This document shows positions 10,259 through 17,382 of a DNA stretch of 64,000 nt, one piece after another. Positions within the stretch are counted from its first letter, which is position 1. Every line of letters begins with the position of its first letter. The notes under the pieces were generated by a model. The model ran no database searches, was not told where the DNA came from, and saw only the letters and a list, made by a program, of their open reading frames with translations. A program made the translations under genes and the position numbers. This DNA is from a virus. The stretch is from IMG/VR virus record IMGVR_UViG_3300045257_000207, positions 1 through 64,000 of that record. One strand, written 5' to 3'.

Positions 10259-12409
10259 ATGTCAACATTGATTAGCCCCGGCGTAGACGTACAAGTTAGT
10301 GACGACGCCTTCTATCCTCTAGCTCAAGCATCCGGGGTGCCACTACTTTTCATTGCTACTGGCGATGAAAAGCTACAGGCCGATGGTGTAACTCCTGCAA
10401 TCGGTACGTTTGAGAGCGGTGTTCTCCGTACTGTTACTTCCATCAAGCAGGCATTACAGCTTTACGGTATTCCTGAATATCTAACTTCTGCTTCTGGCCA
10501 ACCATTCCACGGCGACTGCCGCAACGAATACGGCTTGGATGCTCTTTTGAAGGTTCTCGACGTTGCCGATTTGGCTTATGTAATTCGTGCCAATGTCAAC
10601 TTGAACGATTCTCTTGCCGATTTGAAGGCAATGTGGGCATCTGTTATCGCCGACGCTGGAGCATATCTCGAATCTTTGGTTACCGATTGGTTGACGCAGT
10701 ATAACGATCTGAACGGGTTCATTCCAGCAGATGGTGGTTATAAAACCAGCATCTCCAAAGCTACAATGAAAACACTTGTTGACGAGGCGTTGGTTGTTCC
10801 TTTCTCCAAGTATTCGTTCAGTAGCGACCGTTTCATGAACGCGTTTCTCATGGATCACAGCATAACACAAGCCGGATATCAAGACGTTCTTTTCAATCAG
10901 ACATTCGGTTTGATTACTGCAACCGATCTTACTGGGTTAGTGGCTAGCAAGACCTACGAAGCGCACGTTTCCGTTGTTACTGGTACCGGCACGGTTGTTA
11001 CCGATTTCTCGTTCCTTGGTTCTGACGTAGTCACTTTCGGTGACCTCGTTGCGGCGATGAATGCGAGCATGGGTTCAGATGGTACCGCATCCATCGTGCA
11101 GGGTAGATTGCGTATCACCAGTCCATTGACAGGTTCTACATCGGTAGTTGCGATTACAGACGGTGCCCTGAGTTCCAATGACGGTGCTTTGGCATTGTTC
11201 GGTAGCTTGAATTTGTACCGTTCCATAGCAACAGCTTTCCATGGCGTCGGCGCAGCAACATTGTCCATTTATGACGACTCGTACAATACCATCACAGGTT
11301 CTTATGATGGATTGTATGGCATCATCACTAACTGGTCTACTGGTTCTATCGTAGGTACCGAATTTTCTCCAGATGAAGCAGATGCCGTATTGGTAGCTGC
11401 CGCAGGAGCATTCGATAATACCAAGGAATTCAGGGGTCTTACGTCGTTGGGAAGCAACGATGCTACACGTCGTGCAGCAGTCGTGGCTCAAATGCAGGCA
11501 GCCATCAATAACGTAAGTGCTATCGGTGACTTGGCAAGCTTGGAATACGATCTTGTTGCCGCTCCCGGTTTCCCAGAAGTATCTGATGAGTTGGTTTCGT
11601 TGTCCATCGGCAACTTCGAAGAAGTTCAGGTCATCGGCGAATTGCCGTTCGACAAGCCACCAGTTGGCCCGAACAGTGCAGTTTCGTGGGGTCTCAGCAC
11701 CGCTAAGGTTTCATCCAAGGATATCGGTTATTACTACGGACACGGACTATCGTCAAACATCGATGGTGCTACCATCCTGACAACTTCTGCCGCTACCGCA
11801 TTGCGTACTTACGCATATAGCGACAGCGTATCAGAAGGCCCATGGATCGCTCCAGCCGGTGCGACACGTGGTACTTGCCCACACTTGACCGACGTTGGTT
11901 ATGTGTCCGGTACGCTCGGTGGCCCAACAACGTTCGTTTCGAACCATTTGGACAGAGGTTCATGTGACGCGTTGTATCAGTTCCCGGTCAACATTAACCC
12001 AATTTCATTTGTACCGGGTCGTGGCATCTTGGTCATGGGACAGAAAACAACAAGCCCATTGGCAAACCCAGAAGACCGCGTTAACGTTGCACGTTTGGCA
12101 AAATACTTGAAGAGAACGTTGCGTAAGGAACTCTTCTCCTTCACATTTGAACCGAACGATGACATCACACGCAAGAACATCAAGTCGTCCGCTGATAACA
12201 TTTTGGCCAGCTTGGTTACTCGCCGTGGGTTGTATGACTTCGCTTCCATCTGCGATTCGTCCAACAACGTTCCGGGAACAATCGATGAACATATCATCTA
12301 CTTGGATGTTGCTATCAAGCCGGTGATCACGGGTGAATTCATCTACGCTCGTATCGCGATTGTAAACACGGGTGCCAACATTGGTACAGGTGCTACACTC
12401 AACAACTGA
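10259..12409 (+). CDS. 18: Contractile tail sheath protein, gp18-like
   Basis: 716 residues, near the 659 of T4 gp18. The N-terminus (MSTLISPGVDVQVSD) is the classic sheath start, in which the first strand contributes to subunit interlinking. The C-terminal domain carries NISFVPGRGILVMGQKT-like sequence (NPISFVPGRGILVMGQKT) and an RVNVARLAKYLKR helix, both typical of sheath domains. Sheath subunits surround the tube and contract to drive it through the host envelope. Residues about 220-320 look like an inserted, surface-exposed beta domain also found in the giant upstream protein. A strong Shine-Dalgarno sequence and a perfect late box precede it, and a hairpin terminator follows. Confidence 0.93.
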   Translation: MSTLISPGVDVQVSDDAFYPLAQASGVPLLFIATGDEKLQADGVTPAIGTFESGVLRTVTSIKQALQLYGIPEYLTSASGQPFHGDCRNEYGLDALLKVLDVADLAYVIRANVNLNDSLADLKAMWASVIADAGAYLESLVTDWLTQYNDLNGFIPADGGYKTSISKATMKTLVDEALVVPFSKYSFSSDRFMNAFLMDHSITQAGYQDVLFNQTFGLITATDLTGLVASKTYEAHVSVVTGTGTVVTDFSFLGSDVVTFGDLVAAMNASMGSDGTASIVQGRLRITSPLTGSTSVVAITDGALSSNDGALALFGSLNLYRSIATAFHGVGAATLSIYDDSYNTITGSYDGLYGIITNWSTGSIVGTEFSPDEADAVLVAAAGAFDNTKEFRGLTSLGSNDATRRAAVVAQMQAAINNVSAIGDLASLEYDLVAAPGFPEVSDELVSLSIGNFEEVQVIGELPFDKPPVGPNSAVSWGLSTAKVSSKDIGYYYGHGLSSNIDGATILTTSAATALRTYAYSDSVSEGPWIAPAGATRGTCPHLTDVGYVSGTLGGPTTFVSNHLDRGSCDALYQFPVNINPISFVPGRGILVMGQKTTSPLANPEDRVNVARLAKYLKRTLRKELFSFTFEPNDDITRKNIKSSADNILASLVTRRGLYDFASICDSSNNVPGTIDEHIIYLDVAIKPVITGEFIYARIAIVNTGANIGTGATLNN

Positions 12410-12427
12410 TGCATTGTAGAACAAAAG

Positions 12428-12451
12428 AAAAGGGGCCGAAAGGCCCCTTTT
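12428..12451. terminator. Bidirectional hairpin terminator
   Basis: Perfect stem AAAAGGGGCC / GGCCCCTTTT around a GAAA loop, lying between the convergent sheath gene and the reverse-strand gene at 12473-13195. It has T-runs in both directions, so it can end both transcripts. Confidence 0.9.
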
Positions 12452-12472: not shown

Positions 12473-13195
12473 TTATTCGATGTCTGCGATCTTCGAAACA
12501 TACAAGGACTTCAGGCGGGATTCCATTTTTTCTTTCATGTCCTTATTGAGATGCTCGACTTCTGGAACTTCCTTCATAAACTTCGTGGCAAATTCAGCTT
12601 CATTCTTTCCAAACGCTTCATTTCTTAATATTGAATGAGTGATCTTCTGGGTTTCTTGTTTGCCTACGTTGAATTTATTAAATAACTGCTCTCCTTCTCC
12701 ACGGGCCTTTCGATAAGAATCGATAGCCGCGTCTACAGATTTGACGATGGTGTTGTACATCTCTTCGAACTTCTGATCGTTGTTGACCACGTGAACCATT
12801 TCATCCTTGGTTTTGTGGGCATTTTTCGGTTCTTGGTGAACATAAACTAAATACTTCTCAAACGCGGAGATAAATGGTTTGGCTGTTTCTACATTCTCAA
12901 GGAAATCCACCAAATGTTCCTTGGTCGGCACCTCCGGAGTTTCAATTATGATGTATTTTTTCTGATTGACTTTGTGGATGCCTAATTTTGTTGAACTGAC
13001 CGCGCCCTGTCGAATCTTGACCACGAGATTGTTATAGGAACTGGATTTGATAACTGCTCCAACATTGAAGGTTACGTCCGTAGCAGTGACATCGACGTGA
13101 CCTTTGTCGAGCATTGAAAGGAGTTTGTGGAATACAAGAGTGGCCTCATTTCCGGCACCTTTGAATTCTAACAAGAAGGTTTTGAAGTTTTTCAT
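12473..13195 (-). CDS. Putative internal head protein with capsid-targeting peptide
   Basis: 240 residues of unknown family. The N-terminus MKNFKTFLLE closely follows the T4 capsid-targeting sequence of internal proteins IPI-IPIII (MKTYQEFIAE) and ends in an L-x-E triplet, the cleavage signal of the T4 prohead protease gp21. The rest is charged and helical with no membrane segment. The inference is that the protein is packed in the prohead core, trimmed after LLE and perhaps injected with DNA. It is a lone reverse-strand gene between sheath and tube with its own late box and AAGGA ribosome site, an arrangement that suggests insertion as a cassette. Function beyond the targeting peptide is unknown. 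Confidence 0.6.
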   Translation of the reverse strand: MKNFKTFLLEFKGAGNEATLVFHKLLSMLDKGHVDVTATDVTFNVGAVIKSSSYNNLVVKIRQGAVSSTKLGIHKVNQKKYIIIETPEVPTKEHLVDFLENVETAKPFISAFEKYLVYVHQEPKNAHKTKDEMVHVVNNDQKFEEMYNTIVKSVDAAIDSYRKARGEGEQLFNKFNVGKQETQKITHSILRNEAFGKNEAEFATKFMKEVPEVEHLNKDMKEKMESRLKSLYVSKIADIE

Positions 13196-13219: not shown

Positions 13220-13227
13220 TATTTATC
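13220..13227 (-). promoter_or_regulatory. Late promoter box GATAAATA (internal protein gene)
   Basis: Reverse-strand match to the late box 24 bases before the start at 13195. It forms a divergent pair with the box at 13263. Confidence 0.6.
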
Positions 13228-13262: not shown

Positions 13263-13270
13263 CATAAATA
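13263..13270 (+). promoter_or_regulatory. Late promoter box CATAAATA (tube)
   Basis: Seven of eight positions match TATAAATA; it lies 36 bases before the tube ATG, with AAGGAG between. Confidence 0.65.
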
Positions 13271-13306: not shown

Positions 13307-13921
13307 ATGGCATTGATTACCGATATGGGCGTAACACCAGAAGCTGGTGGTATCCTTCACCCAATGGTCAAAAACAAGTGGCAGGTCGAGTTTTATAACA
13401 TCGGCGGCACACGAGGAGCGGCCAGTGGAAATACTGACACTGAAATTCTTACTTTGCAAGCAGTAACCGGCTCGCGCCCAAAATTGAGCTTCGACGAAGT
13501 TGAACTCAACCGTTACAACTCACGCGGATGGATTGCTGGTAAGCACAAGTGGGAAGCTGTTGACTTTACATTTGAAGCTGATATCGGCGGTCGTACTTCC
13601 CGCGTATTCCAGCAGCAGCTTGAAAAGCAACAGGCGTTGATCGCTTCGCGTGCTGGTCGTGTATTGAATACGGCGCGTTCTGGACAAGAGTATAAGTTTG
13701 GCATGATCGTATCCATGATGGATGGTGACATTACACCGCTTGAACAGTGGGGTTATGAAGGCACATGGATCAGCAGCATGCAATGGGGTGAAATCGACTA
13801 CACGTCGTCTGACGCCATCAAGCTTCAGGTCACATTCCGCTTCGATCATGCACGTCAGTTGATCCTCGGTGAGACTGGTAACGCTACAGGCGGTATCGCT
13901 CCTCTTCCATACACAAGCTAA
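13307..13921 (+). CDS. 19: Tail tube protein, gp19-like
   Basis: 204 residues against 163 in T4 gp19. It has the tube pattern: an N-terminal ligand-like segment (MVKNKWQVEFYNIGG), a strand-rich core with LQAVTGSRPKLSFDEVELN, and a C-terminal AIKLQVTFRFDHAR strand. Rings of this protein stack into the inner tube through which DNA passes. It follows the sheath (interrupted only by the reverse-strand cassette) and is closed by its own strong terminator, as expected for a very highly expressed structural gene. A good ribosome site (AAGGAG) sits before the ATG. Confidence 0.88.
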   Translation: MALITDMGVTPEAGGILHPMVKNKWQVEFYNIGGTRGAASGNTDTEILTLQAVTGSRPKLSFDEVELNRYNSRGWIAGKHKWEAVDFTFEADIGGRTSRVFQQQLEKQQALIASRAGRVLNTARSGQEYKFGMIVSMMDGDITPLEQWGYEGTWISSMQWGEIDYTSSDAIKLQVTFRFDHARQLILGETGNATGGIAPLPYTS

Positions 13922-15759: not shown

Positions 15760-17382
15760 ATGTCCAAGCCTACAGAACTAAACGAAGATGCCGCAGCCGG
15801 TTCTACCAGTGCAGGTAACATCGCCTCCAATTATTCCGCACATGGTGAAACCCGCCAGCGTGATAAGGGTGGCGAACATGAATGGCATCGATCAGTTGCG
15901 GATAGGAAGTCTCCGGAAGGCCAACGCCGTGAAGAACTACGTGCCAAGGCTCGAAAGAATCTTGATGACGCTAAAGCCAAGATGAAGAAAAAGAAAGGAC
16001 TCGTAGGACGTTTCAAGAGCTTCTTGTCATCGACCAACGAATCTGTTTTCAATGATAGTCTGGTCTTGCTCAAGCCAGCAACCCAGTTCAAAATTTCGGA
16101 AAGCTTCAACATGCAAGACGTGGTTTCCCGTCTTAAGGGTGTTGAACATTCCAACAATCCAGCACCGAATGTATCATATGGTGTGGAAGACGATTCTGGT
16201 AATATGATGAAAATTACGGTAAAGTCTGATGACTCAAAGGATTTCGAGAGCGCGTTGGCCACTGCATTGTCTGATGCACAAGATTACAAGAAAGTCACGG
16301 GTGAGACTCGTGAACTTTCCATGGCAGAGTTACTGTTCAATCTCAAGGACAAGTTTGACATTCTGGATGTCGAGTTTCCGACCATTCCAAAGGATGCCAT
16401 ATACAATGCAGATAAAGTCACTTATGGCGATGCGACCGGTACCGAACAGGGAATGGGAGCAGGCGGGCCAGATGACCTATTAGGTGATCCGAATGGCGCT
16501 CCACCGCCAGATGATGGCATGATCGATGGTCTTGATCCCAATGCCCCCAAAGATGGTTCTATGCCGCCTCCAGTAGGCCCAGATGGATTACCGGCCCCAG
16601 ATGCTGCCGGTGGTATGGGAAATCCTGAAGGTGTCCCCGGAGAGGCTGGAGAGCCTCCTATTGGTGGTGAGATGGGCGACGATGCTTCGGTATCAGATTT
16701 TCCACCAGACACAGGCGAAACAGACGAAAAGAGTTTGATCATTTCCGTGCTTAACATGCTCAAGGCCGACGCCGAAGCTAAGATTGCCGTGGCAAACGCT
16801 GAAGCAGAAAAAGCCAGAGCGTTACAGGCGCAATATTCCAAGGAAGCCGCTGAAGGACAATTGTCCCGCGAAGAGGAAAATGCCCGCTTGGAAGCAGAGA
16901 TGGATCGCCAAAAAGATAAAGAAAAGGAAGCCAAGAAAATGGCAGACCTTGCACGTTTCCGTGTCAATTCTATGGGTGAGAACACCAAGCCACGTTTCGG
17001 AACATTCCTGATGGAATTTGTCGAACAGGGTGAAGACTTGAATTCTCTAACTAAAGCGAAGCAAGCGTTGAATCAGCAGTATATGGTAGTTCAGGGTGAT
17101 GACCCGGAAACTATCCAATACAAGCGAGCAGCCTTTGTAGCGGCAACACGCGAAATCGATGCCAAGATCGCCTTGGCACGTTTGACAGCCAATTTCAAAC
17201 AAAAGCAGGACGCTAAACAACAACAGCAGCAGAACCCACAGAACAATCAGCAACCGAACCAGAACAACCAGCAGAACCCACAGAACAATCAGGCTCATCC
17301 ACAACAACAGCCTAATCCTTCTGCGCCGGGAACCAACACCCAGTCGGCGGTCGCTCCTTCCAACAACCAACCGGTGAGATAA
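15760..17382 (+). CDS. Large acidic, low-complexity structural protein (possible head core/scaffold-type)
   Basis: 540 residues, family not recognised. Regions in order: a polar N-terminus with a basic stretch (residues about 45-85, KKKKGLVGRFKSFL), a globular part to about 225, an acidic Gly/Pro/Asp linker (about 227-320), a charged coiled coil rich in Glu/Lys/Ala (about 325-405), PRFGTFLMEFVE near 408, a short helical part, and a Gln/Asn/Pro tail. Several L-x-E triplets (LNE near residue 8, LME near 415) could be prohead protease sites. A coiled, acidic, cleavable protein next to a head-completion gene fits a head core or internal component, but this is inference only. Confidence 0.7.
   Translation: MSKPTELNEDAAAGSTSAGNIASNYSAHGETRQRDKGGEHEWHRSVADRKSPEGQRREELRAKARKNLDDAKAKMKKKKGLVGRFKSFLSSTNESVFNDSLVLLKPATQFKISESFNMQDVVSRLKGVEHSNNPAPNVSYGVEDDSGNMMKITVKSDDSKDFESALATALSDAQDYKKVTGETRELSMAELLFNLKDKFDILDVEFPTIPKDAIYNADKVTYGDATGTEQGMGAGGPDDLLGDPNGAPPPDDGMIDGLDPNAPKDGSMPPPVGPDGLPAPDAAGGMGNPEGVPGEAGEPPIGGEMGDDASVSDFPPDTGETDEKSLIISVLNMLKADAEAKIAVANAEAEKARALQAQYSKEAAEGQLSREEENARLEAEMDRQKDKEKEAKKMADLARFRVNSMGENTKPRFGTFLMEFVEQGEDLNSLTKAKQALNQQYMVVQGDDPETIQYKRAAFVAATREIDAKIALARLTANFKQKQDAKQQQQQNPQNNQQPNQNNQQNPQNNQAHPQQQPNPSAPGTNTQSAVAPSNNQPVR

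What the first reader, a model, noticed from the sequence alone, without database searches (positions are those of the whole stretch)
12473..13195. Capsid-targeting peptide on a reverse-strand gene between sheath and tube
MKNFKTFLLE mirrors T4 internal protein leaders (MKTYQEFIAE) and ends in L-x-E, the gp21 cleavage triplet. T4 internal proteins are injected and can protect phage DNA or disarm host defence. A single gene inserted against the strand of an otherwise conserved sheath-tube pair is a typical place for variable cargo.
Basis: partly seen in the sequence, partly recalled or inferred. Interest (0 to 1): 0.62.

Follow-up and report, generated by a model that had tools for sequence, protein, structure and literature searches.

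The report
Likely head-packaged protein of giant phages
This gene of a giant bacterial virus encodes a conserved protein whose first ten residues match the 'ship me into the head, then cut me off' tag of phage T4 internal proteins, so it is probably packed into the virus head and injected with the DNA; the protein behind the tag belongs to no described family and may be a dead relative of metal-dependent proteases.

Summary
In detail: window 12473-13195(-) is a real 240-aa gene between sheath and tail-tube genes, starting MKNFKTFLLE. Relatives at 28-36% identity occur in XacN1, RAS14/CM1 and three IMG/VR contigs. All six distinct members keep a T4-type capsid-targeting leader. It is the most conserved segment (47% pairwise identity) and is followed by the least conserved linker (17%). 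In T4 the same N-terminal scan finds only internal proteins IPII and IPIII. Four relatives with longer genomes encode a gp21 protease and a gp23 capsid protein. The gene and the divergent tube gene each have a T4-type late promoter element (NATAAATA) in all six. The mature part matches no curated family. Weak but concordant profile, fold and structure evidence suggests an inactive (HExxH-less) zincin-like domain; active zincins with LxE leaders are virion proteins in related jumbo phages. Best reading: a late-made, head-packaged, gp21-trimmed, ejected protein. Presence in virions, cleavage and host target are untested.

The parts
12473..13195 (-). 240-aa gene of the leader-bearing, probably head-packaged protein
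   Evidence: homologs
13166..13195 (-). Capsid-targeting leader MKNFKTFLLE (residues 1-10); predicted gp21-type cut after E10
   Evidence: position-by-position match to T4 IPII/IPIII (PMC9026906); scan; conservation; isolated helix 4-10 with pLDDT <50 in the model
12836..13156 (-). Alpha/beta domain (residues 14-120): helix, strands, helices; zincin-like topology suspected
   Evidence: AlphaFold models; Foldseek; VIA-align
12836..12892 (-). Helix (residues 102-120) aligned by hhalign to the HExxH helix of the SCTP-2 zincin; here F-x-x-A-F-E-K-Y, no zinc motif
12476..12808 (-). C-terminal helical part (residues 130-240), with a conserved K-x-E/D-S-R-L segment near its end
   Evidence: alignment, model
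13220..13227 (-). T4-type late promoter element GATAAATA, 32 nt upstream of the gene; present at -31 to -37 in all six phages
   Evidence: local chance 0.03-0.10 each
13263..13270 (+). T4-type late promoter element CATAAATA, 44 nt upstream of the divergent tube gene; present in all six phages
13307..13921 (+). Tail tube gene, invariant divergent neighbour
12423..12451 (.). GGGGCC-TTTC-GGCCCC hairpin flanked by A and T runs, between the convergent ends of this gene and the sheath gene: bidirectional terminator candidate
   Evidence: sequence read
10259..12409 (+). Tail sheath gene, neighbour here but moved away in two relatives

Best explanation
The gene encodes an internal head protein of a T4-type assembly pathway in an XacN1-like jumbo myovirus. 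It is transcribed late from a T4-type late promoter placed back to back with that of the tail tube gene. Its ten-residue leader (aromatic residues F4 and F7, then L8-L9-E10) docks the protein in the prohead core. The gp21-type prohead protease then cuts after E10, leaving a 26-kDa, cysteine-free protein in the head, to be ejected with the DNA. What it does in the host is inferred only: its body looks like a zincin-like domain that has lost the zinc-binding HExxH, so it would act by binding a protein rather than cutting one. Shown: gene, leader, conservation, late-promoter elements, protease and capsid genes in relatives. Inferred: packaging, cleavage, ejection, fold, activity.
For: Leader: strict N-terminal scan finds only IPII and IPIII in T4 (0.25 expected) and this gene in the window (0.04 expected). 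Six of six homologs have [FY]xx[FY][LI]x(1,2)E. Pairwise identity is leader 47%, linker 17%, domain 37%. T4 mutagenesis assigns targeting to residues 4 and 7 and processing to 8 and 10 (PMC9026906). Machinery: gp21 family PF03420 and gp23 family PF07068 in RAS14, XacN1 and two IMG/VR relatives; three of their gp23s have LLE or LAE followed by TA in the N-terminal pre-domain region. The neighbouring 540-aa protein family keeps L-x-E before a conserved small-residue start (MSKPTELNE-DAAAGS, MSFKTFLQE-TAAGGS, MTKSLNE-TAGAGA, MTKQKLNE-TAGGGA). Late expression: NATAAATA upstream of the gene and of the tube gene in 12 of 12 cases; ATAAATA is the proposed late promoter before structural genes in CBB and GAP32 (PMC5259590). 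Virion precedent: zincins with LxE leaders in a related jumbo phage are annotated ESI-MS/MS virion proteins (PA5oct gp104 and gp105), and the zincin CBB_322 was found with 30 peptides (PMC5259590; sequence). Zincin-like body: a SCTP-2 HELTH protein is the best non-family hhalign hit among 390 proteins (score 32.0, next 23.8); leaderless pair profile score 38.5, equal to the zincin-versus-zincin control 38.0; a BFVD entry of the same length is a top Foldseek hit (E 4e-5); 23 of the 50 top VIA-align rows are zincins.
Against: No proteomics of this protein or a homolog was found; the XacN1 virion paper's main text does not mention ORF352, and its figure and supplements could not be read. The window's 74-kb record holds no gp21 or gp23, probably because it is a fragment. 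The residue after the cut would be a bulky Phe. T4 IPs are basic; this family has pI 5.9-8.4. The gene sits by a tail gene, not by head genes. All zincin evidence is weak: Z at most 3.7, low-pTM models (0.45, 0.58), HMM E 0.31, no curated family, and a broader zincin profile scored low (25.5).
Confidence: 0.72

Rival explanations
1. Prohead core or assembly factor: the leader brings the protein into the core, but it works during head or neck assembly (core component, assembly chaperone) and is not an effector.
For: Conserved within the lineage rather than variable, invariant linkage and late-promoter pairing with a tail gene. Among T4 IPs, loss of IPIII slows head assembly (PMC9026906).
Against: Seven outgroup jumbo phages with the same tail genes lack a detectable homolog, so it is not a general assembly need. 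Unlike T4 gp22, gp67 and gp68, the leader supplies one clear N-terminal cut site.
Confidence: 0.15
2. Tail-associated protein or tail-tube chaperone, whose LxE N-terminus is an incidental amphipathic helix.
For: Always next to the tube gene with a paired late promoter; stays with the tube when the sheath gene is elsewhere.
Against: The leader matches the T4 targeting and processing positions and is more conserved than the rest. The same kind of leader occurs on unrelated proteins away from tail genes in RAS14 and XacN1.
Confidence: 0.08
3. Ordinary cytoplasmic late protein; the leader resemblance is chance inherited by descent.
For: One short motif; the residues after the cut vary (F, N, V, Y, T, G).
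Against: Six homologs at 28-36% identity to the window protein keep it over a variable linker; T4 calibration shows few false hits, although PA5oct, GAP32 and RAS14 give a few short or doubtful ones.
Confidence: 0.05

Closest known systems
T4 internal proteins IPII/IPIII (and IPI, Alt) with capsid-targeting sequences
   Same: 10-residue N-terminal leader with aromatic 4, Phe 7, Ile/Leu 8, Glu 10; gp21 and gp23 pathway in relatives; late-promoter element
   Different: No sequence similarity in the mature part found; larger than the IPs, not clearly basic; conserved in its lineage; divergent to the tail tube gene
XacN1 ORF352 (BBA65500) and RAS14 WAX21621, unnamed hypothetical proteins
   Same: Same family, full length, same leader, same divergent position next to the tail tube gene
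   Different: About 29% identity to the window protein; in XacN1 and RAS14 a block of accessory genes separates it from the sheath gene
Virion zincins of RaK2-like and other jumbo phages (CBB_322, GAP32_316/317, PA5oct gp104/gp105, RAS14 282-aa protein, SCTP-2 ASV44477)
   Same: LxE-type leader on most and a similar helix-sheet-helix layout; SCTP-2 ASV44477 is the best distant profile and fold match
   Different: They carry HExxH; the window family does not. Homology is suggested, not proven
Polyvalent proteins with zincin-like metallopeptidase domains (Iyer et al. 2017, PMC5512222)
   Same: Proposed to be packaged and injected; zincin domains are their commonest domain
   Different: Single small protein without the multidomain architecture and without the catalytic motif

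Membership tests
T4-type capsid-targeted internal head proteins | N-terminal leader with the residues needed for targeting (4, 7) and processing (8, 10) | tested here: met
   PMC9026906
T4-type capsid-targeted internal head proteins | gp21-type protease in the same phage | tested here: inconclusive
   PF03420 in four relatives; absent from the 74-kb fragment that holds the window
T4-type capsid-targeted internal head proteins | Late expression | tested here: inconclusive
   T4-type late promoter element present in 6 of 6; transcription not measured
T4-type capsid-targeted internal head proteins | Present inside heads with the leader removed | not testable with these tools
   no virion proteomics of a homolog readable
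T4-type capsid-targeted internal head proteins | Sequence similarity of the mature part to IPI/II/III or Alt | tested here: not met
   no Pfam or PHROG family match; tblastn in phages finds only XacN1, RAS14 and CM1. IPs themselves are not conserved, so this is not disqualifying for the kind
Zincin-like metallopeptidases | HExxH motif | tested here: not met
   none in any of six members
Zincin-like metallopeptidases | Zincin fold | tested here: inconclusive
   hhalign score 38.5, Foldseek E 4e-5 to one SCTP-2-type entry, VIA Z 2.3-3.7 to several zincin families
Polyvalent proteins | Several disparate domains in one chain | tested here: not met
   240 aa, one alpha/beta part plus helices

The most novel reading that the evidence does not exclude
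Jumbo phages of this group load their heads with a set of LxE-tagged zincin-fold proteins, and the window family is a catalytically dead member kept as an injected binding or decoy protein, or a partner of active virion zincins, co-expressed with the tail tube.
Probability: 0.3. Interest if true: 0.65.

Novelty: new member of a known kind. Interest (0 to 1): 0.45.

Why it matters
It gives a family of unannotated jumbo-phage proteins a testable destination (the head interior) and a predicted cleavage point. The N-terminal leader scan could list head cargo in jumbo phages from sequence alone: in RAS14 and XacN1 it also flags a 346/351-aa family of unknown function, and in RAS14 an HEVQH protein. 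If the body is a dead zincin, it would be an example of an enzyme fold reused as packaged, non-catalytic cargo.

Tried and rejected
Near-identity search of phages for the locus: no match. The search for related loci with the single sequence: none. Genome contigs: none. Second profile scan of viral contigs: no new members. Pfam, PHROGs and PDB sequence search: only chance-level hits. PDB Foldseek with the full model: nothing significant; VIA with the full model: generic helix matches to RNA polymerase and CorA. Scan of viral contigs for more SCTP-2-type zincins: none. A broad zincin alignment (RAS14, GAP32, CBB etc.) against the family: weak, score 25.5. Mixing PA5oct and SCTP2_40414 zincins into the profile destroyed the match. 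Considered and rejected: 'recent insertion or variable cargo' (conserved locus), and 'leader by chance'. Whether XacN1 ORF352 was seen in virions could not be learned.

Full report
Observation. The ORF at 12473-13195(-) is real: ATG start, AAGGA upstream, 240 codons, between a tail sheath gene and a tail tube gene that both lie on the plus strand. Its first ten residues are MKNFKTFLLE. T4 IPII and IPIII begin MKTYQEFIAE. T4 mutagenesis, as summarised in PMC9026906, places head targeting mainly at residues 4 and 7 and processing at residues 8 and 10; the window protein has F4, F7, L8 and E10.

Is the leader more than chance? A strict N-terminal pattern (M, 1-3 residues, aromatic, two residues, aromatic, aliphatic, 1-2 residues, Glu) was run over ORFs of seven phages or fragments. 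In T4 it hits exactly IPII and IPIII with 0.25 expected. In the window it hits only this gene with 0.04 expected. In RAS14 it hits this family, a 346-aa family, a 282-aa HEVQH protein and two short ORFs with 0.32 expected. The outgroup genomes PA5oct and GAP32 give a few doubtful hits, so the pattern is informative but not perfect.

Relatives. tblastn finds XacN1, RAS14 and CM1; profile scanning of viral contigs adds three IMG/VR contigs. Counting RAS14 and CM1 once, there are six distinct members, the others at 28-36% identity to the window protein. Their leaders are MKNFKTFLLE, MRFSTYLTE, MLTFKKFILNE, MRSFKQYILNE, MRFTSYLIE and MSFKTFLIE. Pairwise identity is 47% in the leader, 17% in the following linker and 37% in the domain. 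This is the pattern expected of a functional tag joined by a disposable linker. No member has a cysteine in its mature part.

Locus. In every member the gene lies directly beside the tail tube gene in the opposite direction. In XacN1 and RAS14 a block of accessory genes separates it from the sheath gene. In the two larger IMG/VR relatives the sheath gene is about 24 kb and 91 kb away. So the constant partner is the tube gene. Outgroup jumbo phages (PA5oct, Phosso, SCTP-2, Atu_ph07, PBECO4, GAP32, XbC2) have no detectable homolog apart from one sub-threshold match in SCTP-2, and where sheath and tube are neighbours their interval holds nothing or other genes on the same strand. The gene is a conserved, lineage-specific fixture, not variable cargo.

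Expression. The sequence NATAAATA lies 31-37 nt upstream of the gene and 32-52 nt upstream of the tube gene in all six phages, 12 of 12. Its chance in 60 bp of the same local composition is 0.03-0.10 each. The T4 late promoter is TATAAATA, and ATAAATA was proposed as the late promoter before structural genes in CBB and GAP32 (PMC5259590). The gene and the sheath gene converge on a GC-rich hairpin flanked by A and T runs at 12423-12451, a bidirectional terminator candidate.

Machinery. RAS14, XacN1 and two IMG/VR relatives carry gp21-family proteases and gp23-family capsid proteins; in the three gp23s read, LLE or LAE followed by TA occurs in the N-terminal pre-domain region. The window's own 74-kb record has neither gene and is probably a fragment. 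The nearby 540-aa protein (15760-17382) keeps an L-x-E at its N-terminus across its relatives although surrounding residues vary, as expected of a protease site.

What is the body? No Pfam, PHROG or PDB sequence family matches. AlphaFold with four sequences gives a loose leader helix (residues 1-15 under pLDDT 50), an alpha/beta part and a helical C-terminus; pTM is only 0.45 full length and 0.58 for residues 14-178. Foldseek against BFVD ranks a 250-aa entry third (E 4e-5). Its accession could not be checked, but its length fits SCTP-2 ASV44477, a protein with HELTH; one other 250-aa SCTP-2 ORF exists. Independently, ASV44477 is the best non-family hhalign hit among 390 proteins of SCTP-2 and RAS14 (score 32.0, next 23.8) and the sub-threshold HMM hit. 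With leaders removed, the family against ASV44477 plus a homolog scores 38.5, and a control between two true zincin families scores 38.0. The aligned register puts F-I-S-A-F-E-K on F-V-H-E-L-T-H, so the zinc residues are absent. VIA-align of the domain model lists zincins of several families in 23 of 50 rows, but Z is at most 3.7, a range that can mean only a common arrangement. I rate a zincin-like, inactive fold at about even odds.

Why packaging is plausible beyond the leader. HExxH proteins with LxE leaders occur in related jumbo phages, and several are virion proteins: PA5oct gp104 (MKILEFNLTE-KAS) and gp105 (VRLNEINLIE-TSD) are annotated ESI-MS/MS; CBB_322 was identified with 30 peptides and 43.6% coverage (PMC5259590), although its LxE is internal, just before the conserved domain. 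GAP32_316 (MRYNQLQE-AII) is annotated a virion structural protein.

Mechanism. Made late, docked in the prohead core by the leader, trimmed after E10, packaged with DNA and ejected. Packaging, trimming and ejection are inferred. The role in the host is unknown; a binding role is my best guess if the fold is a dead zincin. An assembly role is the main rival.

Verdict. It is a new family within a known kind.

Noticed in passing
window 15760-17382 (+): 540-aa protein with several L-x-E sites; its N-terminal LNE/LQE is conserved in its relatives, two of which have the full aromatic leader (MSFKTFLQE, MGFKTYLQE). Candidate multi-cut head core protein.
   Followed up: partly
L032:2221-3258 (RAS14 138721-139761) and XacN1 190362-191417: 346/351-aa family of unknown function with leader MSFVQFLIE / MRFVQYLIE, found only in RAS14, CM1 and XacN1: candidate head cargo.
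   Followed up: partly
L039:8509-9357 (RAS14), XacN1 ORF117, SCTP-2 40414, 47818, 243350, 380169, PA5oct 260677-262099: HExxH (zincin) proteins with LxE leaders; homologs or counterparts in PA5oct and CBB are mass-spectrometry-confirmed virion proteins. Looks like a widespread class of packaged metallopeptidases.
   Followed up: partly
window, both strands: NATAAATA late-promoter elements occur 20 times, many about 30-45 nt upstream of gene starts (e.g. 10218, 15715, 27689).
   Followed up: partly
SCTP-2 229694-230827 (L130): 377-aa protein whose C-terminal part resembles the window family's alpha/beta domain (hhalign rank 5); a BFVD entry of the same length is also a Foldseek hit. N-terminal part resembles a nucleotidyltransferase.
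   Followed up: no
G002 and G003 (L006, L007): Tail sheath gene lies 24-91 kb away from the tube gene, while the sheath-stabiliser homolog remains next to this gene.
   Followed up: yes
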